Source of the DNA: an uncultured Dysosmobacter sp.
GTDB lineage: Bacteria; Bacillota; Clostridia; Oscillospirales; Oscillospiraceae
Length of the DNA stretch: 10,056 nucleotides
Assembly (NCBI GenBank): GCA_934504065.1
Contig: CAKSVQ010000078.1
Location: forward strand, 1 to 10,056
Direction of reading: 5' to 3'
A program made the position numbers and the translations under genes. The number at the start of each line of letters is the position of its first letter. The stretch's first letter is position 1. This document shows positions 1 to 10,056 of the stretch, one piece after another. The notes below the pieces were generated by a model. That model ran no database searches and had not been told where the DNA came from. It was given only the letters and a program-made list of their open reading frames with translations.

Positions 1-1560
1 CGGCTTTACGCCTTTGTTTTCGTAATATCTGTACCCGACGAAAACGCCCTCGTTATAATCGACGGTTTTGCCGTTTCCGACCGCCAGAGAATAAGTCGAT
101 AATTGTTTTTCGTTTTTTACCCACGTTTCGGCAAGTTTACCGCACGGCGAGTATTTTCCCGCAAGCAAATCCGCAATGCCGAAGCAGCCGTTTTCACCGG
201 GAAGTCCGCATAACATAATGCCGTCCGTTTTGCCTGCCCACGGCAATTCGATCACTCCGCCGACAAACAGTAAAACCCCGACTCTTTTTCCCGATTTTAT
301 CGCAGACGAAACGAGTTTGTTTATTGCAGGTGGCAATTTCAGGTTTTTCCTGTCGTAACCTTCGCTTTCGTCTGCTTCGCGCAGTTTACAAGATACGATT
401 ATCTTATCGTAAGGGGAAAAGTCTATATCGCAGGTCGTTCCGCTCTCGGTGTCGCACCCGCGAACGTACTCGTAATCGAGTTTTGTTTCTTTTAACGCAT
501 TTAACAGAGAAATTGCGTTTGCGTTGTTGACGTGCGAACTTCCGCCGCCCTGATAGGGAGTGTCTTCCGTCGCGTCGCCCGTAAACAGTATTTTTTCGCC
601 GCTTTTAAGCGGAAAGAAATTATTTTCGTTTTTCAAAAGAACGACGCTTTCTCTAGCGGCGGTTTTTACTAATGCGAGCGCGGAATCCCTGCTAAAATGT
701 TCGACGGTTTGTTTTCTGTTATCGACGCAATCGAGAACGAATTTCGCAATGCGATCCGCCGCCGTAGATATTTCCGTTTCGGTTATTTCGCCTTTATCGT
801 AAGAGAGTTTAAGCCTTTTATAAATTTCGCCTTCGGGCATCGCAAGGTCGAGTCCCGCTTTAACTGCGGCCGCTTCGTTTACCACCGCACCCCAGTCGGA
901 AACGACGATTCCGCCGAAGTTCCATTCGCCCCTTAATACGTCCGTAAGAAGTTTTCTATTTTCGGAGCAAAAAACGCCATTTACGAGGTTATAGGCGCAC
1001 ATAATCGCTCTTGGAGACGCTTTTTTAACGATAATTTCAAACGCTTTAAGATATATTTCCCGGAGCGTTCTTTCCGTCATTCTCGAATCGGAAAAATTCC
1101 GTCTGTATTCGATATTGTTGCACGCAAAATGTTTTACGCAACAACTTACGCCGACAGACTGCAACCCGTTAATAAAAGCCGCGCCGAGTTCTCCGCTTAC
1201 GACGGGATCTTCCGAATAGTATTCGAAATTTCTTCCGCAAAGCGGCGTTCTTTTAATGTTTACCCCCGGACCTAAAACCATGTCCGAAGAGTTGGCGCGT
1301 GCCTCTTTTCCGAGTGTTTTTCCGAGCCTGAAAAGCAGTTCTTTATCAAAAGAGCAGGCGATCGTGCTTTCCGTCGGATAACAGACGGAAACGTCGCTTT
1401 CGTTTATGCCGAGATGGTCGCCCGTTTTCCGCTGGATTCTAAGTCCGTGCGGACCGTCGCACATAAAAATTGCGGGCAGTAAGCCTTCGATTTCGTAAGT
1501 ATGCCACCATCCGTCGCCCGACAGAAGCCTAATCTTTTGTTCGATTGTCAAATTTTCCAT
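1..1560 (-). CDS. Glycoside hydrolase family 3 beta-glycosidase (beta-glucosidase-like), C-terminus cut by window edge
   Basis: Retaining exo-acting beta-glycosidase that releases a terminal sugar, probably glucose, from an oligosaccharide or glycoside. The reading frame is open from ATG at 1560 to base 1 (520 residues seen). Seen: a TIM-barrel domain with FEYYSEDP (about 112-119), KHFACNN (143-149) and SDWGAV, where Asp222 is the expected catalytic nucleophile. The alpha/beta sandwich domain follows with QGGGSSHVN (337-345) and ESEGYDR (398-404). Glu400 of that motif is the likely acid/base by analogy with GH3 enzymes carrying this motif. The window ends in NEGVFVGYRYYENKGVKP, so the FPFG-type loop and the fibronectin-III-like C-terminal domain usual in about 700-800-residue members should lie outside. 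There is no signal peptide, and 16 cysteines are present in the visible part, which fits a cytoplasmic enzyme. AAGGA lies 7 nt before the start, just after a terminator-like hairpin. The exact sugar specificity (glucose, xylose, other) cannot be read from the sequence. Confidence 0.96.
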   Translation of the reverse strand, partial: MENLTIEQKIRLLSGDGWWHTYEIEGLLPAIFMCDGPHGLRIQRKTGDHLGINESDVSVCYPTESTIACSFDKELLFRLGKTLGKEARANSSDMVLGPGVNIKRTPLCGRNFEYYSEDPVVSGELGAAFINGLQSVGVSCCVKHFACNNIEYRRNFSDSRMTERTLREIYLKAFEIIVKKASPRAIMCAYNLVNGVFCSENRKLLTDVLRGEWNFGGIVVSDWGAVVNEAAAVKAGLDLAMPEGEIYKRLKLSYDKGEITETEISTAADRIAKFVLDCVDNRKQTVEHFSRDSALALVKTAARESVVLLKNENNFFPLKSGEKILFTGDATEDTPYQGGGSSHVNNANAISLLNALKETKLDYEYVRGCDTESGTTCDIDFSPYDKIIVSCKLREADESEGYDRKNLKLPPAINKLVSSAIKSGKRVGVLLFVGGVIELPWAGKTDGIMLCGLPGENGCFGIADLLAGKYSPCGKLAETWVKNEKQLSTYSLAVGNGKTVDYNEGVFVGYRYYENKGVKP

Positions 1561-1578: not shown

Positions 1579-1604
1579 AACCGCCGCGAGAAATTGCGGC
1601 GGTT
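1579..1604 (-). terminator. Intercistronic intrinsic terminator or attenuator between permease and GH3 gene
   Basis: In the 51-nt gap after the second permease, the minus strand reads AACCGCCGC, loop AATTTCTC, then GCGGCGGTT: a perfect 9-bp GC-rich stem. It is followed at once by a U-rich tail, so that the transcript reads GGUUUUAUUUUAAGG. This is the shape of a Rho-independent terminator, although the U tract is broken by one A. The GH3 Shine-Dalgarno (AAGGA) lies directly after the tail. Read-through could give lower GH3 than transporter expression; the stem could equally protect the 3' end of the transporter mRNA. Confidence 0.75.
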
Positions 1605-2510: not shown

Positions 2511-3452
2511 CTAAATCAACCCGTAAGAAGTTACTTTCTTGTTGAGTTTATTCGAAATCACAAGCAGTATCAGCGTTGCGACCGAATTGAACAAACCTAT
2601 CGCCGTGGTGTAACTGTATTCGGGCGAGTTGGAAGTAAATCCGAGACGGTAAACGTAAGAGCCGATTGTTTCGCCGACTTCCCACGTTTCGCCCGAATAA
2701 AGAACGACTATCTTATCGTACCCGATGGACAGTATCATACCCATACGCAGGGTAAGCATCATCATAATGGTCGGCAGAATAGACGGAAGTGTGATATGGA
2801 ATAGTTTTGCGCATCTACCCGCGCCGTCGAGTTCCGCCGCCTCGTAAAGAGAGGGGTCTATCGAAGACAGCGACGCGACGTAGATAATACTGCCGAAACC
2901 AAGCCCTTGCCAGATATCGGAAATAATAATTATCGCGCGGAAATAACGTTTATCGCCGAGAACGCTCATATCTTCGCCTATCCAGCCCATTTTACCGAAC
3001 CACGAACCGATAAAGCCGTAAGGATCGCAAAAACTCTTGATAAGTCCGCAAACGACTACGAGAGAGATGAAATACGGCATATACGCGCACGTCTGAATCG
3101 AACGTTTGAAGAATTTGTTTTTTACGGAATTAAGTAAAAGCGCGAATATGATCGGCGCGGGGAATGAAAAAATCAATCCCCACAATCCGTAAATCAAGGT
3201 GTTTCGTATCGTCCTTAAAAAGTAAGGATCCTGAAAAAACCTGATAAAATGGGCAAGTCCGACGAATTCGCTTTCAAAAAAACCGTTGCCGAGTTGATAA
3301 TTCTGAAACGCGAGCGCGATACCCGCCATAGGCAGATAACTGAAAAGAACGAAATATACGATAACCGGGAGTATCAGAAGATACAACATTTTATTCTTTT
3401 GAGCGTCGCGTTTCAGTTTACCGAAAAACGTCGATTTTGTTTGCGTTTTCAT
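2511..3452 (-). CDS. Carbohydrate ABC transporter permease, LplB-like (CUT1 family, MalF position)
   Basis: First membrane subunit of the importer, 313 residues. It has a basic N-terminus (KLKRDAQKNK) and about six membrane segments (near 22-42, 83-108, 121-141, 171-193, 222-245, 285-300). The EAA loop is EAAELDGAGRCAKLFHITLP at 204-223. FSYLPMAGIALAFQNYQ after the first helix is characteristic of LplB-type permeases. The large periplasmic insertion of enterobacterial MalF is absent, as is usual for this subgroup. A GAAGG Shine-Dalgarno lies 7 nt before the ATG, inside the 13-nt gap after the binding-protein gene, which supports one transcript. No ATP-binding subunit gene is adjacent. Systems of this kind usually share an MsmX/MsmK-type ATPase encoded elsewhere, which is an inference here. 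Confidence 0.95.
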   Translation of the reverse strand: MKTQTKSTFFGKLKRDAQKNKMLYLLILPVIVYFVLFSYLPMAGIALAFQNYQLGNGFFESEFVGLAHFIRFFQDPYFLRTIRNTLIYGLWGLIFSFPAPIIFALLLNSVKNKFFKRSIQTCAYMPYFISLVVVCGLIKSFCDPYGFIGSWFGKMGWIGEDMSVLGDKRYFRAIIIISDIWQGLGFGSIIYVASLSSIDPSLYEAAELDGAGRCAKLFHITLPSILPTIMMMLTLRMGMILSIGYDKIVVLYSGETWEVGETIGSYVYRLGFTSNSPEYSYTTAIGLFNSVATLILLVISNKLNKKVTSYGLI

Positions 3453-3465
3453 AATGATACCTTCG

Positions 3466-5130
3466 TTAATTTTTCCAGTCGTCGGGAATCGTTCTCGACA
3501 AGAACGCCCTGTAAGACTTTTCGCTTATTTCTACCGCTTTGCCTATATCGTATTGCGAACTTTTAAGCGTGGAGACGTAACTGTCGAACTCTTTCAAAGA
3601 GCGCGTGCCTTTCACGAATTTAATCAGATTTTCGCTGACGTAAGTGTTTACCGCGTTCATGATCTGCGTGTGAGTCGCTCCGTCCGAACCGGTATAAGCG
3701 GCTGTCGCCCTCAGATTATACGCGCCGTCGTTTTTGTACGTCCAGATATTTTCCGCAGATAAAGCTTTTTCGCCTTTGAACACGTCCGTCTTCGTGGTGT
3801 CGTTTTTCGTGGGGAATCCGAACGAAATATACTCGTAAAACCCTTTATCGGGGTTATTTTTTATCTCGTCCGAGAAGTTTTTGCTGCCGTCGGGGTTAAG
3901 CGTATAAGTCTGCCCTTCTACGCCGTAATTCATTAAAGCCGCGCCTTCGTCGGTGTATAAATAGTCGAACCACTCTACGATTTCTTTGGCTTTTGCCTCG
4001 TCGCATTTCGTCGTTACAAACGCGCTCATTCCCAACTTTCCGTTATTGCACACAAGATGATTGACGTCCGTTTTGCTTATTCTCGGCTGAGGAATCGCCA
4101 TAAGATCATAACCCGAAATGCCGTTTGCTTTGCCAAGTTCTATCTTGGAATCGATATAAGTGGACATTTCCGCCCATACCATGGAAAGCGGTTTCGTGCG
4201 GGAAGTTCCTACGGAGTTTTTGTTTTCCGTGGTAAGCCCGTTTGCCGACTGCGCGAAATTCGGATCGATAAAGCCCGCCTTATACCATGCGTTCATCTGT
4301 TCGAGATAATCTTTAAGCCCGTCTTCGACGTAACCGATTTTAAGCGAACGATTGCCGCTTTCGTCAACGTAATCGTAATATGCCGTATCGCCGAGAGCAA
4401 AGCCGAAACCGGCGTTAAGCGTGTCGAGAGAATCTCTGCCCGTAGCGGGGAAACAGAGCGGATATTTAACCGCTGTTTCTTTATCGCCGTCGTTATAAGC
4501 CTTTTTTACTACGGTGAATATATCCGTCCAATGGGAATATAAAGTCGGGGTTAAAAGCGTTTGCCCCTTGCTGTCTTTCTCTCCGAGGTCTTCCCAATCG
4601 GAATAAGTCGTGAACGAATTTTTGTATTTTTCGATTATGTCTTTGCGCATAACCAGTCCGCGCCACGGCTTTTCGATGGGATCGTTTACTACGTAAAATC
4701 CGCCGATTCTGTCGCCGTCTATCGTAGTGCCTTTCCATATATCTTCGTCGGAAGTTATGAGTTTTTTATAGTTTGGCGCATAATTTTTAACAAGATCCGT
4801 TATATCGTAAACGTGTCCGTTATTGATACCCGCCGCGTATCCGTTCGGATAACCGAGCAACAACACGACTTCTGGATACGACTTTGTGGAAAGCATTGTG
4901 GTATAATCGTCGCCGAGAACGAATTTTACTTTTTTACCCGTACGCTTTTCGAGTTCTTTGAACGCATACGAAGTTTCACCGTAGTTTCTTATAGAACTGT
5001 CGGTCTGATAACACCAGATAGTAAAATCGTATTTTTCCTCGTTTTTCTTACAGCCGGCAGCCGAAAAACCCACGGTTGCGGCGACGGCAAAAGCCGCCGC
5101 GCATCCGATCATTCTTTTTAATAATTTCAT
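3466..5130 (-). CDS. Extracellular solute-binding lipoprotein of a carbohydrate ABC importer (LipO/YtcQ-like)
   Basis: Captures the sugar ligand outside the membrane and delivers it to the two downstream permeases. It has 554 residues, long for a family-1 binding protein but normal for LipO-type proteins. Seen: a signal peptide with a basic start, a hydrophobic stretch and the lipobox SAAGC, so Cys27 would be lipid-modified. Then come KYDFTIWCYQTDSS (33-46, first strand), WYKAGFIDPNF (282-292), and TDEGAALMNYGVEGQTYTL (393-411), a motif typical of LipO/YtcQ proteins. AGGTG lies 5 nt before the ATG. It follows the repeat lipoprotein by 14 nt and precedes LplB by 13 nt, so all four genes look like one operon. 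The ligand is probably a plant-type oligosaccharide or rhamnoside, judged by the neighbouring enzymes only. Confidence 0.95.
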   Translation of the reverse strand: MKLLKRMIGCAAAFAVAATVGFSAAGCKKNEEKYDFTIWCYQTDSSIRNYGETSYAFKELEKRTGKKVKFVLGDDYTTMLSTKSYPEVVLLLGYPNGYAAGINNGHVYDITDLVKNYAPNYKKLITSDEDIWKGTTIDGDRIGGFYVVNDPIEKPWRGLVMRKDIIEKYKNSFTTYSDWEDLGEKDSKGQTLLTPTLYSHWTDIFTVVKKAYNDGDKETAVKYPLCFPATGRDSLDTLNAGFGFALGDTAYYDYVDESGNRSLKIGYVEDGLKDYLEQMNAWYKAGFIDPNFAQSANGLTTENKNSVGTSRTKPLSMVWAEMSTYIDSKIELGKANGISGYDLMAIPQPRISKTDVNHLVCNNGKLGMSAFVTTKCDEAKAKEIVEWFDYLYTDEGAALMNYGVEGQTYTLNPDGSKNFSDEIKNNPDKGFYEYISFGFPTKNDTTKTDVFKGEKALSAENIWTYKNDGAYNLRATAAYTGSDGATHTQIMNAVNTYVSENLIKFVKGTRSLKEFDSYVSTLKSSQYDIGKAVEISEKSYRAFLSRTIPDDWKN

Positions 5131-5144
5131 ATCGCACCTGCTAC

Positions 5145-6422
5145 TTATTTAACTTCCGTAACGGTTATATCGCCGAGCGAAGCGTTGGGATAGCCGAAGC
5201 TCATCAGACCTTCGGTTACGGCAACGGTCCTTTCGGCAATTTCTTTTCCCTCGCCTTCTTCGAGAAGTTTTATTTTAAGCGTTTCGCCGTCTTTGACGAG
5301 ATTATAATGACCTTTAAACGTCATGGAAAGAGCGGCTATCGTCATTTCGTATGCGCCGTTTACCCTCATCGTGATAACGACTTCGGCGTTACCGAGAGCC
5401 GCTACGGTTGCCTTGAAAACCGTCTTTTTTTCAAAAGCGTTGAGCGTTCCGAGCGCTTCGGGATAAGGCGTAGTCGCGGGGATTTTTTCAACGTCGTTAT
5501 AAAGCGTATACGTGCCGAGCGTAGCGTTTACGTAGGTCATCGTGATATAAGAACTTTCGCCTTCGGGAACAACCGCCATAGCGTATTTTACTATATCGGT
5601 TTTTCCTTCTTCGAGAAGAGAAATTTCGGTGGGGTTTTCTGCGTTGTCGAGTTTATACGCGCCTTTGCTTTCTACTTTCGCGCTCGTCGGCTTACCGTCT
5701 TTTTCTCCCGATAACGAAACGGAGCAAGCGTACTGTCCGTCGTCCGTAAACGAATAGATTATTTCCGTTACTTTGCCGAGCGGACCTGCTTCCGCTTCGC
5801 TAACGTCCGCAACGAAATTCTGAACGCTTGCGAAAACGACCTTTTCGCCGAGAGCGGCGGGATATTCGAATTCTTTTAACGAACCCCAGTTTGCGCTGTT
5901 GCTGTAATAAGGCATTGCAAGTTTACCGTTGAAGATATGCGTAAACTTGTAACTTCCGTCGTCGAGAGTTTCAAGATCGTAAGTTACCGTTTTTGCCGCG
6001 TCGGGATCTTCGAGAGCCGCGCCGTCTTCCGACTGATTGCCGTAGAATTTCTGCGCAACGGTAAGGGTAACAGCCGTCTTGTCGTCGTTAAGTTTGTACG
6101 TGCCGTTTACGTTAAGGAAAACGGGGGCAAGCACCGCGCCCATCGCGTTAAACGAATGTTCTACGGTGAAAGTTCCGTCTTTCTTCATCGTGATAACGCT
6201 GCTCGTAAATCCTGCGCCAAAGGTGGGGACTACGGCGTAATCGAGATAAAACGCGGTGTCGCTTTCAAACGCGTCCGTTTTTGCTGCAGGCGGTTCTGCG
6301 CTATTACCGGAACCCTGCGAATCCGATCCGTTTCCGCCGTTACAACCGACGAGCGAAAAACTAAGCGCTAAGGCTAAAATTAACGTGAGTATTGAAACAA
6401 ATTTTCTTTTTGACGATTTCAT
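5145..6422 (-). CDS. Putative lipoprotein with three internal beta-rich repeats, function unknown
   Basis: I do not recognise the family. From the ATG at 6422 the protein has 425 residues. That start is preferred over in-frame codons further upstream (to 6485) because it begins a classic lipoprotein signal peptide: MKSSKRK, a hydrophobic stretch, then LVGC with Cys27 as the expected lipidated residue. AAGGAGG precedes it, though the spacing is long (about 11 nt). The upstream codons overlap the promoter. A Gly/Ser/Pro-rich linker (28-48) follows. The rest alternates hydrophobic and polar residues and shows three related units: VITMKKDGTF with NGTYKLNDD (76-122), IIYSFTDDGQY with KGAYKLDN and LLEEG (221-273), and VVITMRVNGAY with KGHYNLVKDG and LLEEG (348-390). 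The pattern resembles lipocalin-like or other small beta-barrel/sandwich repeats. As first gene of a sugar importer operon it may be a surface glycan-binding partner; this is inference. Confidence 0.85.
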   Translation of the reverse strand: MKSSKRKFVSILTLILALALSFSLVGCNGGNGSDSQGSGNSAEPPAAKTDAFESDTAFYLDYAVVPTFGAGFTSSVITMKKDGTFTVEHSFNAMGAVLAPVFLNVNGTYKLNDDKTAVTLTVAQKFYGNQSEDGAALEDPDAAKTVTYDLETLDDGSYKFTHIFNGKLAMPYYSNSANWGSLKEFEYPAALGEKVVFASVQNFVADVSEAEAGPLGKVTEIIYSFTDDGQYACSVSLSGEKDGKPTSAKVESKGAYKLDNAENPTEISLLEEGKTDIVKYAMAVVPEGESSYITMTYVNATLGTYTLYNDVEKIPATTPYPEALGTLNAFEKKTVFKATVAALGNAEVVITMRVNGAYEMTIAALSMTFKGHYNLVKDGETLKIKLLEEGEGKEIAERTVAVTEGLMSFGYPNASLGDITVTEVK

Positions 6423-6448
6423 TTTATCATCGTCCTCCTTATTTTCAT

Positions 6449-6465
6449 CGAGCGTTTGCCGCTCG
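6449..6465 (-). promoter_or_regulatory. Perfect inverted repeat: 5'-end stem-loop of the importer mRNA, or an operator
   Basis: The minus strand reads CGAGCG GCAAA CGCTCG, a perfect 6-bp inverted repeat around a 5-nt loop. If transcription starts at A6469, seven bases after the -10 box, the hairpin begins at nucleotide +5 of the RNA and ends before the AAGGAGG. It could stabilise the 5' end of the mRNA. As double-stranded DNA just downstream of a strong promoter, it could instead be a repressor operator. The sequence does not decide between these. Confidence 0.6.
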
Positions 6466-6475
6466 TGTTGAGACA

Positions 6476-6566: not shown

Positions 6567-8210
6567 TTAACCCCGTTTTTTATATCGCGACGGCGTAATT
6601 CCGTTGATTTTTTTGAATACACGCATAAAAGTACCGCGATCCGAAAAACCCGTTTTTACCGCCGTTTCTTCAACGGATAAGCCTTCTTCGAGCAAGCGTT
6701 CGGCGTTATTTATCCGCGTTTTATCAATGTAAATGGATAAACTTTCGCCCGTCGTTTCCTTGAACGAACGCGAAAAATGCGATAAACTGAAATGAAACTT
6801 TTCGGCAAGATACGCAACCGTAAGATTAGCGTCCGTATAGTTATCCGCGACGTATTCTTTAACGGCTTCGGTCCAATCGTTTTTATCCACTCCGTATTCA
6901 TCGGTATAACTTTGCAGCGCGGAAAAAACTTTATCGGTAGCGGAAATAAAATCGTCTTTCGACAAAGCGTTTGAAAAAACGTTTGTATAATCGAGTTCCG
7001 TTAAAAAACTTTCCTTAAAGTTTTTCGTCGCTTTATCGAGTTCGGCATTTAACCTGCCGCTTAAAGACAGTAATCTCGCGGCGACTTCGTTCTCACTCAC
7101 GTTATCCGTCATCGGCAAAACGAATTTTTTTAATTTTTCGCCCGCTTCGGAAAAATCTTTCGTTTTTAATAAATTGAAAAACGCTTTTACGTCTTCTACG
7201 TTGATTACCGCTATGCCTTTTATTATCGCGTCGCGATCCGATTTCGCTTTTTCTTCCGCAAAGCGTTTCTGCTCTATTATTTTGTCTATTCCTTTTTCTA
7301 TCGAGTCGAATTCGCCCTTTTCCGACAAAACGTCGCCGTCGTTTAGTTTTTTTGCGATTTTTTCAATCGGCTTATAACCGCGTTTTGCGTTTTTTACGAT
7401 AAGAAACGCCGTTAAAGCAACGCTTAAAACGAGCGACGCGGAGAAAAATATCCATAATGGTATGAATATATAAGAATATTCGCCGCCCGGAATCGACATT
7501 GAGTAATTTATGCCCGTAGATTTTCCGATTATTGCGTTTTTGAATGCGTTTTCGCTCGGTCTGCCTTTCGTAATTTCTATTTCGCCTATCGACAAAACGA
7601 AATTACCGTAACCGAAATAATCGATAACGCTTTTTTTAAGTTTACCGTTATCGATAATCCAGACCGCTTTTTTATCGGCAACGTAATCGACGCTCAATAT
7701 CGCCGCAGAATACTCTCCGAAGTCAATCAGACGAATTTTCTCGGCGGAGTATTCGCCGTACGTTTTTTCGAGTTGCTCCGCGCTCTTTCCGACGAGTCGG
7801 GATATAGTATCGGCAAAATAAGTTTTATCGTCCAACCCCGCGTCGGTTATAAAAAATCCGTCGGAAACGGGCAACGCAACTCTCGTTACGAAAGGCGTTT
7901 CGCTTTTAATCGCAACCAGCTTGTCTTTTACCGACGTGAATTTATCGTCGTCGACGCCGAGCGATATATCGGAGCGATCGAGAGAAATATAGTCGTATCC
8001 GTAAACGATTTTATGAGTTTTTTCGATTGCCGTTTCAAGCGACGCTTCAAAATATTCCGTAAAAGCGGAAAAAACGCTTTGCTCGGTTTTTTTAATCGCC
8101 GAGGAGAGCGCGCTGAAAGTAACGGCGTAAACCGCTATGCTTGTAATTAAAGGTATAAGCGTGATAAGTAAGTATGTTCGGACTCTGTTTTTAACGTAAG
8201 TTTTCATCAT
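6567..8210 (-). CDS. Membrane-anchored AraC-family transcriptional regulator (YesS/YtdP-like one-component sensor)
   Basis: Transcription regulator that probably senses an extracytoplasmic signal and controls this sugar locus. It has 547 residues. Seen: a membrane helix at about 12-34, an extracytoplasmic region of about 210 residues, a second helix at about 247-272, then a charged, HAMP/coiled-coil-like stretch (about 275-325) and a helical linker. The C-terminal AraC domain (about 450-547) has two helix-turn-helices, near 464-486 (LTVAYLAEKFHFSLSHFSRSF) and 512-534 (SVEETAVKTGFSDRGTFMRV), and ends ITPSRYKKRG. Two ATGs occur in a row at 8210 and 8207. GGGGGA lies 3 nt from the first and 6 nt from the second, so the second may be the real start. 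The gene follows the esterase by 29 nt. Bacillus YesS and YtdP have similar layouts in pectin-related loci. The ligand is unknown. Confidence 0.93.
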   Translation of the reverse strand: MMKTYVKNRVRTYLLITLIPLITSIAVYAVTFSALSSAIKKTEQSVFSAFTEYFEASLETAIEKTHKIVYGYDYISLDRSDISLGVDDDKFTSVKDKLVAIKSETPFVTRVALPVSDGFFITDAGLDDKTYFADTISRLVGKSAEQLEKTYGEYSAEKIRLIDFGEYSAAILSVDYVADKKAVWIIDNGKLKKSVIDYFGYGNFVLSIGEIEITKGRPSENAFKNAIIGKSTGINYSMSIPGGEYSYIFIPLWIFFSASLVLSVALTAFLIVKNAKRGYKPIEKIAKKLNDGDVLSEKGEFDSIEKGIDKIIEQKRFAEEKAKSDRDAIIKGIAVINVEDVKAFFNLLKTKDFSEAGEKLKKFVLPMTDNVSENEVAARLLSLSGRLNAELDKATKNFKESFLTELDYTNVFSNALSKDDFISATDKVFSALQSYTDEYGVDKNDWTEAVKEYVADNYTDANLTVAYLAEKFHFSLSHFSRSFKETTGESLSIYIDKTRINNAERLLEEGLSVEETAVKTGFSDRGTFMRVFKKINGITPSRYKKRG

Positions 8211-8239: not shown

Positions 8240-9223
8240 CTAAAAATCAAACGCTTCGCCGAGCCAGCCGCAAAGGTCGGTATTCGAGCCCAAACCGAAT
8301 CCGTGTCCGCCTTTTTCCGCCGTTTTTAATTTCGCGCTTACGCCCAAAGAGTTAAGCCTTTCGACAAAGGCAGCGCTCTTGATCGGATTAACGGTATTGT
8401 CGTCGTTTGCCTGAACGATAAATGTTTCGGGATACTTATCCGAAAGGTGTTCGAGCGGAGAATACCCGTCTATAAGTCGATTATCGAAGTTTTTCCCGAA
8501 CAATCCCGTAAGCATATACGCGCCGATTTCCCCCGTCAGATCTTTAAGATCGACGAGCGGATACGCAAGAATTACTTTTGCGGGATTTTTAAGCCCGTAT
8601 TTTTTCAGCCCGATATTTTCGCAGGCTACACTCGCGCAAAGATGACCGCCCGCCGAAAAACCGCATACGCTGTAATCGCTCATATCGACGTTCAAGTCGT
8701 CCGCGCAATTTGCGATAAGCCTGATCGCCGCGGCAAAATCTTCCATCGGCTTAGGCAAAAGCCCCGATATAAAACTTTCGGGCGTTGCCGTGCGATAACG
8801 CAAACAAAAACAATCGTACCCGTTTTCCGCAAGAACCGTCGCAATGGGAAAGCCTTCCGCAAGATTGCACACCGAGCCGTACGCTCCGCCCGAAGCGATA
8901 AACGCCGTTTTTCTTTTTTTGTTTTTCGCCGGGAAAAAGACGAGTTTAACTTTGCGTTTATCCTCGTCGCTTTCGATTTCTTTCTCGCCGTAAACGGGAA
9001 TAACCTTTCCGCCGCGGGCAAAAGCGTCGCGAACGCCGAAAATTCCCGTAAGCATATCGGCATAGCCCCACGTCGGCTGCACTTTCTCGTTAAACTCTTT
9101 CAAAGAAAGTTTGCCCGTTTCGCCGAGAAAGAAATTTTCTCCGCCCGCGATAAGGCAATCTTTTATTTCCGAAAGAGATACGTCGTTATAAAGGTCGTAA
9201 AGAGTCGTGTTTTCGTTTATCAT
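8240..9223 (-). CDS. Alpha/beta-hydrolase, putative carbohydrate esterase (acetyl-esterase/lipase-like)
   Basis: Serine hydrolase that probably removes acetyl or other acyl groups from a sugar substrate in the cytoplasm. It has 327 residues from the ATG at 9223. That start is chosen over an in-frame codon at 9280 because it overlaps the rhamnosidase stop codon as ATGA and has GGGGGC 5 nt before it. Seen: the oxyanion-hole motif SGGAYG (111-116), nucleophile elbow GFSAGGH with Ser190, the acid in NDDNTVNP (probably Asp275), and His307 in KGGHGFG. There is no signal peptide. The first 90 residues or so, which include EFNEKVQPTWGYADMLTG (44-60 region), precede the hydrolase core and I cannot assign them to a domain. 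The tight coupling to GH78 suggests that the two enzymes act on the same acylated rhamnose-bearing molecule. Peptidase or lipase activity is less likely but not excluded. Confidence 0.92.
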   Translation of the reverse strand: MINENTTLYDLYNDVSLSEIKDCLIAGGENFFLGETGKLSLKEFNEKVQPTWGYADMLTGIFGVRDAFARGGKVIPVYGEKEIESDEDKRKVKLVFFPAKNKKRKTAFIASGGAYGSVCNLAEGFPIATVLAENGYDCFCLRYRTATPESFISGLLPKPMEDFAAAIRLIANCADDLNVDMSDYSVCGFSAGGHLCASVACENIGLKKYGLKNPAKVILAYPLVDLKDLTGEIGAYMLTGLFGKNFDNRLIDGYSPLEHLSDKYPETFIVQANDDNTVNPIKSAAFVERLNSLGVSAKLKTAEKGGHGFGLGSNTDLCGWLGEAFDF

Positions 9224-10056
9224 TCGTTGCCCCCGAAAACGTAATCGCCGCTGCCTATTTCGTAAGTTTTTCCCTGCCATTCTACGATTGCAGTCGTGTT
9301 TACGGGAATGCTTACCGAAAGCGTATCGCGGTTTCTCGCGACTTTTATTTCGCCCGCTTCCGCAACGAGCGTGCGGGAGAATTTTTCAAAACCGTAATAG
9401 GTATCGGGCGCGATTTTAATCTTTTTGAACCCCGCTTCGATAAAATCGATACCGCAAACTCTTCTTCTGAACCATTCGTCTATTACGCCGAACGCATAGT
9501 GATCGAAACTGACTTTTTCGGGATTTCCGTTTTCGTCCATAGCCGTCCACGATTCCCACATACTCGTCGCGCCTTTTTCGACTTCGTATAACCAAGAAGG
9601 GCTTTTCGTCTGATAAAGTATCGCCTTAGCGAGATCTTTTCTGCCGATTTTTTCGAGCGCGTCCATAAGAAAAGGCGTTGCGAGAAAACCCGTCTGCAAA
9701 CAATATCCGTGTTCTTCCACAAGCGATATAAGCCTTTGTTTATATTCTTCGCGGTGAATATCGTCTACGAGATCGAACGCGAACGCAAGGACGTACGCGC
9801 CCATTAAATGGCGTGGGAGCATGTCGTTTGCAAAAAGTCCGTTTTGAATGGCAGACTTCATTTTTTTTGCGTAATCGCTGTAAAATTCCGCGCTTTCGTC
9901 GCCGATAACTTTACCGAGTTCGGAAAACATGGTTAAAGTTTTATAACCGAAAAACGACGAGATATACAACGCGGATTCTTTGCATATTTCAAAGCCTTCG
10001 CCCGTCCTTCCGGGAACGAGCCATTCGCCGAACTGAAAGCCCGTATCCCATAAATA
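9220..10056 (-). CDS. Alpha-L-rhamnosidase, glycoside hydrolase family 78, C-terminal part
   Basis: Inverting exo-enzyme that releases terminal alpha-L-rhamnose. The gene enters from beyond base 10056 and ends at TGA 9222-9220, leaving 278 residues in view. Seen: the (alpha/alpha)6-barrel part of the GH78 catalytic domain, with WDTGFQFGEWL at the very edge (window residues 3-13), CLQTGFLATPFLMDAL (119-134), PSWLYEVEKGATSMWESW (153-170) and SFDHYAFGVIDEWFRRRVCGI (183-203). The Glu in ATSMWESW (window residue 168) is a good candidate for the catalytic base by family analogy. From about 220 a C-terminal beta-sandwich domain follows (RTLVAEAGEIKV, LSVSIPVNTTAIVEW). The N-terminal beta domains and the general acid are outside the window, so intactness and any signal peptide cannot be judged. 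Its stop overlaps the esterase start (ATGA). Confidence 0.95.
   Translation of the reverse strand, partial: YLWDTGFQFGEWLVPGRTGEGFEICKESALYISSFFGYKTLTMFSELGKVIGDESAEFYSDYAKKMKSAIQNGLFANDMLPRHLMGAYVLAFAFDLVDDIHREEYKQRLISLVEEHGYCLQTGFLATPFLMDALEKIGRKDLAKAILYQTKSPSWLYEVEKGATSMWESWTAMDENGNPEKVSFDHYAFGVIDEWFRRRVCGIDFIEAGFKKIKIAPDTYYGFEKFSRTLVAEAGEIKVARNRDTLSVSIPVNTTAIVEWQGKTYEIGSGDYVFGGNE

What the first reader, a model, noticed from the sequence alone, without database searches (positions are those of the whole stretch)
5145..6422. Unrecognised triple-repeat lipoprotein as first gene of a sugar importer operon
A CUT1 importer operon normally starts with its binding protein. Here a 425-residue lipoprotein (LVGC lipobox, Cys27) comes first, 14 nt ahead of the binding protein and directly behind the promoter. 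It has three related beta-rich units, each with a strand of the form VITM..DG.(F/Y) followed by (K/N)G.Y.L...D and a further strand. It matches no family I can name. It could be a surface glycan-binding or docking protein working with the importer, analogous in role only to accessory glycan-binding proteins of Bacteroidetes.
Basis: partly seen in the sequence, partly recalled or inferred. Interest (0 to 1): 0.7.

Follow-up and report, generated by a model that had tools for sequence, protein, structure and literature searches.

The report
Lipocalin-like lipoprotein heading sugar importer operon
An uncultured bacterium puts a lipid-anchored protein, built of three similar barrel-shaped units, at the head of the operon for a plant-sugar importer, possibly to help catch or sense the sugar at the cell surface; the units resemble a common barrel fold, while the protein family itself looks rare and unstudied.

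The parts
5145..6422 (-). lipoprotein gene, 425 aa, three lipocalin-like units
6342..6422 (-). signal peptide and lipobox LVGC, Cys27
   Evidence: Cys27 invariant in 15 of 15
5847..6278 (-). unit 1 (residues 49-192), most conserved, next to the lipid anchor
   Evidence: separate AF2 model of residues 48-195, pLDDT 88.7, pTM 0.82; 48-56% identity to the six distant relatives in alignment A1
5469..5855 (-). unit 2 (residues 190-318)
   Evidence: AF2 model; related to unit 3, hhalign score 53.8; 38-54% identity to the six distant relatives
5148..5468 (-). unit 3 (residues 319-425), least conserved; present twice in four relatives
   Evidence: 26-50% identity to the six distant relatives; two unit-3 matches in P0011, P0012, P0042, P0043
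6476..6504 (-). sigma-70-type promoter-like site, 11 of 12
6446..6467 (-). hairpin near the predicted 5' end of the mRNA; ribosome-binding site left unpaired
   Evidence: -11.1 kcal/mol, z -4.88, 0 of 200 shuffles as stable; the mRNA start is assumed from the promoter-like site
6434..6439 (-). AGGAGG ribosome-binding site
   Evidence: sequence
3466..5130 (-). solute-binding protein of the importer (554 aa)
   Evidence: profile matches to Smon0123 and AlgQ1/AlgQ2 entries
2511..3452 (-). permease, LplB-like
   Evidence: PF00528, 54.2 bits
1612..2499 (-). permease, YtcP-like
   Evidence: PF00528, 50.9 bits
1579..1604 (-). terminator-like stem between the YtcP and GH3 genes
   Evidence: 9 pairs, 7 G-C; the number of such sites in the window is near chance (20 found, 17.7 expected)
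1..1560 (-). GH3 glycoside hydrolase, cut by the window end
6567..8210 (-). AraC-type regulator with two membrane-spanning stretches and about 210 residues between them
   Evidence: HTH_18 75.5 bits; hydropathy peaks at residues 10-34 and 246-274
8240..9280 (-). BD-FAE type esterase
   Evidence: PF20434, 63 bits
9220..10056 (-). alpha-L-rhamnosidase (GH78-type), cut by the window end
   Evidence: PF17389, 138.7 bits

Best explanation
An accessory cell-surface lipoprotein of an oligosaccharide ABC importer. Shown from sequence: a lipobox, three related units, and a place directly ahead of the binding protein and both permeases. Predicted: one transcript from the promoter-like site; units of lipocalin-like barrel fold. 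Inferred: the protein stands on the outer face of the membrane, its conserved first unit near the importer and its variable outer units reaching outwards; the outer units bind a rhamnose-containing plant glycan, or fragments of it, and raise the local concentration for the solute-binding protein. It would work like the accessory glycan-binding lipoproteins of Bacteroidetes, without being related to them.
For: First gene behind the best promoter-like site, 14 nt before the binding protein. Same-strand neighbourhood of rhamnosidase, esterase and GH3 genes. The importer's binding protein is nearest, among solved structures, to Smon0123 and AlgQ1/2. Equal longest-contig lengths for lipoprotein and binding-protein clusters in two distant relatives: 14,181 (P0014/P0017) and 181,273 (P0015/P0019, 3 contigs each). 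In those pairs the binding protein is 75% and 67% identical to the window's, the lipoprotein 39% and 38%, so the lipoprotein diverges faster. Conservation falls from unit 1 to unit 3, and the unit-3 type is present twice in 4 of 16 homologous clusters. Related barrels occur at the C terminus of GH43 arabinanases.
Against: No profile match to a carbohydrate-binding module. Lipocalin-like barrels serve many purposes. The 7 distant importer operons seen lack it, so this importer type works without it. Contig sharing rests only on equal contig lengths; for 14 of 16 lipoprotein clusters no listed binding-protein cluster has the same longest-contig length. No residue could be mapped onto a binding site, because the model coordinates were not among the files.
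Confidence: 0.45

Rival explanations
1. An NlpE-like co-sensor. The lipoprotein reports the sugar, or the state of the envelope, to the outside part of the membrane-bound AraC-type regulator encoded just upstream, and so tunes the operon.
Against: The window protein has only Cys27 and one other Cys, so no cysteine pair within a unit. The lipoprotein has its own promoter-like site and is placed with the importer, not with the regulator. Whether relatives also keep the regulator could not be tested.
Confidence: 0.2
2. A general envelope lipoprotein or spacer that sits in the operon by chance or for expression level, with no part in sugar uptake.
For: Fast divergence and variable number of units; absence from 7 distant importer operons; DUF5640 matches occur away from such importers in an order-level sample (0 of 40 regions).
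Against: Probable shared contig with the same binding-protein subfamily in two distant relatives; conserved unit 1 with invariant VPTFG and SLKEFEYP stretches (within SLKEFEYP all eight letters invariant); 14 nt spacing to the binding protein.
Confidence: 0.25
3. A carrier or scavenger for a small hydrophobic ligand, such as the aglycone of a rhamnosylated plant glycoside, held in the barrel in the manner of classical lipocalins.
For: Unit 1 aligns with lipocalin-like proteins, lipocalins and avidins; rhamnosidase and esterase neighbours fit phenolic glycosides as well as pectin.
Confidence: 0.1

Closest known systems
Lipocalin-like domains (Pfam DUF5640, Lipocalin_4, DUF4923, DUF5004) and the C-terminal domain of GH43 arabinanases (GH43_C)
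   Same: Weak profile matches in several members and fold matches for the units
   Different: Three or four units in tandem on one lipid anchor, with highly conserved unit-1 motifs; the window protein stays below every curated cut-off
Surface glycan-binding lipoproteins of Bacteroidetes (SusE/SusF, SGBP)
   Same: Several beta domains on a lipid anchor beside a glycan importer (role only; recalled)
   Different: No SusC/SusD-type gene among the eight genes called in the window; the importer is an ABC type; the SusF_SusE profile matched one of 15 members, at E 0.73
NlpE
   Same: Lipoprotein with a lipocalin-like barrel
   Different: No cysteine pair within a unit; three barrels; lies in a sugar importer operon
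AlgQ and Smon0123-type oligosaccharide importers
   Same: The binding protein of this window has its best solved relatives there
   Different: The passages read of the Smon0123 paper (12 of 51 places) describe a binding protein and transporter subunits and mention no accessory lipoprotein; the rest of that paper was not read

Membership tests
Lipocalin-like barrel domain | profile match above the curated cut-off | tested here: inconclusive
   Window protein below all cut-offs (best DUF5004, 20.3 of 21.6 bits). 2 of 12 homologues scanned singly pass one: P0012 DUF5640 29.2/28.5 and P0010 NlpE 22.7/22.0
Lipocalin-like barrel domain | eight-stranded antiparallel barrel in each unit | tested here: inconclusive
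CUT1 solute-binding protein | two-lobe alpha/beta binding-protein fold | tested here: not met
   Units are all-beta apart from short helices in the model; no binding-protein family match for this protein
SusE/SusF or SGBP | gene beside a SusC/SusD pair | tested here: not met
   Neighbours are ABC permeases and a binding protein; no SusC/SusD among the eight genes called; beyond the window not tested
NlpE | cysteine pair in the N-terminal barrel (PMC6593411, passage) | tested here: not met
   Only Cys27 (the lipid anchor) and one further Cys in the window protein
Accessory importer lipoprotein | binds the sugar or the importer | not testable with these tools
   needs protein work
Accessory importer lipoprotein | homologues lie next to the importer | tested here: inconclusive
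   Equal longest-contig length with a binding-protein cluster for 2 of 16 lipoprotein clusters; no DNA context was reachable for homologues

The most novel reading that the evidence does not exclude
A counterpart of the Bacteroidetes surface glycan-binding proteins on an ABC importer: an unrelated, modular lipoprotein family of three to four lipocalin-like barrels that captures a rhamnose-containing plant glycan and hands it to the importer's binding protein, with the number of outer barrels changed by duplication.
Probability: 0.3. Interest if true: 0.6.

Novelty: new variant of a known kind. Interest (0 to 1): 0.35.

Why it matters
ABC sugar importers are usually pictured with one binding protein (recalled). 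A dedicated second, multi-barrel lipoprotein made in front of it would mean that some of them gather glycans at the surface in two steps, and would give a first function to a lipocalin-like domain that Pfam lists as unknown (DUF5640; no paper in the searched library holds that name). If it is instead a co-sensor, it would be an NlpE-like device in a sugar operon. Either reading can be tested with one purified protein and one deletion in a laboratory host.

Tried and rejected

Relatives in genomes. The scan of GTDB r220 contigs matched 69 stretches, none a relative by tblastn. Viral contigs: none for the lipoprotein or the binding protein. The genome search with the lipoprotein profile: 1 of 3 genomes at E <= 0.1, 4 of 391 in a class sample and 16 of 396 in an order sample at E <= 1e-4, 0 of 1 at 1e-3, 0 of 198 at 1e-5. 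In some searches as a rule only four first-look candidates per genome were scored. The 26 matches listed end at or before profile position 131 of 416, and 17 of them before position 60; I read them as signal-peptide or single-domain resemblance and counted none as a relative. No genome known to hold the family was in these samples, so they show rarity only within the sample. The protein searches scored about 8,000 candidates each, so 16 clusters is a lower bound. Binding-protein profile: 4 of 291 (class) and 1 of 327 (order) at E <= 1e-40, 1 of 6 (family) at 1e-20; all distant. The two compared by BLAST, L002 and L001, are 32% and 28% identical.

Seven operons. L001, L002, L003, L015, L016, L017, L018. 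The lipoprotein profile met three ORFs there at E 0.0009 to 0.003, all three the binding proteins themselves. L004 (permease 23% identical) had no binding-protein match and was left out. L014 is the same operon as L002 and was counted once. L015 to L018 have only about 1.5 kb on each side of the match, and ORFs under 100 residues were not examined.

General link of lipocalin-like domains to importers: tested with DUF5640 and rejected. 40 regions, covering 43 of the 44 listed places in all 37 matching genomes (one second place in G551 was not fetched), had no LplB or YtcP match at E <= 1e-5; flanks were up to 8 kb, shorter where contigs ended. More than half of those places are below the Pfam cut-off or at its edge; 19 of 200 genomes have one above it. 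As a control the two permease models found 5 of 5 known permeases, of which one (L014, same as L002) was in the training set.

Papers: ten searches. Searches returned no paper. In the listed titles and abstract starts of the others I saw no such lipoprotein; these lists were cut to 6 to 15 papers. Only PMC6593411 and PMC5430744 were opened, and only passages read. No claim is made that such a protein is absent from print.

Full report
What is there. The eight genes called in the window all lie on the - strand. In order of transcription: rhamnosidase (GH78-type, cut), BD-FAE type esterase, AraC-type regulator, the lipoprotein, solute-binding protein, LplB-like and YtcP-like permeases, GH3 hydrolase (cut). 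The lipoprotein runs from 6422 to 5145, 425 residues, with LVGC and Cys27. A promoter-like site with 11 of 12 consensus bases lies at 6504-6476, between regulator and lipoprotein; it is the best of 17 such sites found where 12.7 are expected. If transcription starts just behind it, the leader begins with a hairpin (z -4.88, 0 of 200 shuffles as stable) and leaves AGGAGG unpaired. The gap to the binding protein is 14 nt.

Three units. Sub-alignments of residues 49-192, 190-318 and 319-425 were compared with hhalign: scores 24.0, 40.4 and 53.8 for pairs 1-2, 1-3 and 2-3, each above all 100 column shuffles (best shuffles 20.1, 22.1, 19.9). Pair 1-2 has only 11% hhalign probability, and single-sequence BLASTP sees only pair 2-3, so the kinship of units 1 and 2 rests mainly on both being related to unit 3. 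The units are 48-56%, 38-54% and 26-50% identical to those of the six distant relatives in alignment A1. P0011, P0012, P0042 and P0043, 4 of 16 clusters, have a second copy of the unit-3 type.

How rare. Two searches of 5.8 billion proteins, each scoring about 8,000 candidates, found 16 clusters in all, none with a precomputed Pfam domain or a name. No relative was found in the GTDB r220 contig scan or, beyond signal-peptide-like or single-domain resemblance, in samples of 391, 396 and 198 genomes.

Link with the importer. P0014 (lipoprotein) and P0017 (binding protein) both have a longest contig of 14,181 bases; P0015 and P0019 both 181,273, each with 3 contigs. I infer the same contigs; adjacency is not shown. 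14 of 16 lipoprotein clusters have no such partner in the lists; P0042 (26,046), P0043 (26,004) and binding protein P0021 (26,026) are near but not equal. In the other direction, none of 7 operons with distant binding proteins (L001, L002, L003, L015-L018) has a relative of the lipoprotein next to it. L002, a Clostridiales MAG, has the same SBP-LplB-YtcP-GH3 order (32, 45, 41 and 40% identity) without it, so the lipoprotein looks like an addition at the head of an existing cassette, or a loss there. DUF5640 matches occur in 37 of 200 genomes of that order, 19 of them above the cut-off; 0 of 40 regions around them carry LplB or YtcP permeases (models checked on 5 known permeases, one of them a training sequence). 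So the barrel domain as such is not an importer part.

What is imported. The binding protein passes no Pfam cut-off, but its profile finds 5gub and 5gx8 (Smon0123 by the accession list in PMC5430744) at E about 1e-20, 5xs8 at 1e-21, and AlgQ1/AlgQ2 entries at E 1e-14 to 4e-12. Smon0123 binds hyaluronan and chondroitin disaccharides (PMC5430744, passages); that AlgQ binds alginate is recalled. With rhamnosidase, esterase and GH3 beside it, a rhamnose-containing pectic or glycoside fragment is the likely cargo; this is inference.

Mechanism. I favour an accessory capture protein: anchored by Cys27, conserved unit 1 near the membrane and importer, fast-evolving outer units towards the substrate. 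In the two inferred pairs the binding proteins are 75% and 67% identical to the window's while the lipoproteins are 39% and 38%. A co-sensor for the neighbouring regulator, which has about 210 residues between two membrane spans, is a rival by analogy with NlpE and CpxA (PMC6593411, passages). A plain envelope role is not excluded and I give it 0.25.

Verdict. The host could not be named; its best permease matches are in Clostridia MAGs (48% and 45%), with a Treponemataceae MAG at 37%.

Noticed in passing
window 9220-9280: The listed esterase start (9280) overlaps the rhamnosidase end by 61 nt; the next ATG, at 9223, would give a 4-nt overlap and may be the true start, suggesting translational coupling.
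   Followed up: no
window 6446-6467: Stable hairpin near the predicted 5' end of the operon mRNA (z -4.88); no Rfam match at gathering score in the window. Perhaps a transcript stabiliser.
   Followed up: partly
window 3466-5130: The binding protein passes no Pfam cut-off although its profile finds AlgQ and Smon0123; 8 of the 26 relatives listed are above 45% identity.
   Followed up: partly
window 1579-1604: Terminator-like stem between the YtcP and GH3 genes: importer and hydrolase may be made in different amounts.
   Followed up: no
window 6567-8210: AraC-type regulator with two membrane spans; its N-terminal part has no Pfam match above cut-off.
   Followed up: no
L002:1651-3412: In the Clostridiales MAG with the same cassette, two ORFs lie ahead of the binding protein where the lipoprotein would be; the first looks like a PHP-type phosphoesterase by eye (not scanned).
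   Followed up: no
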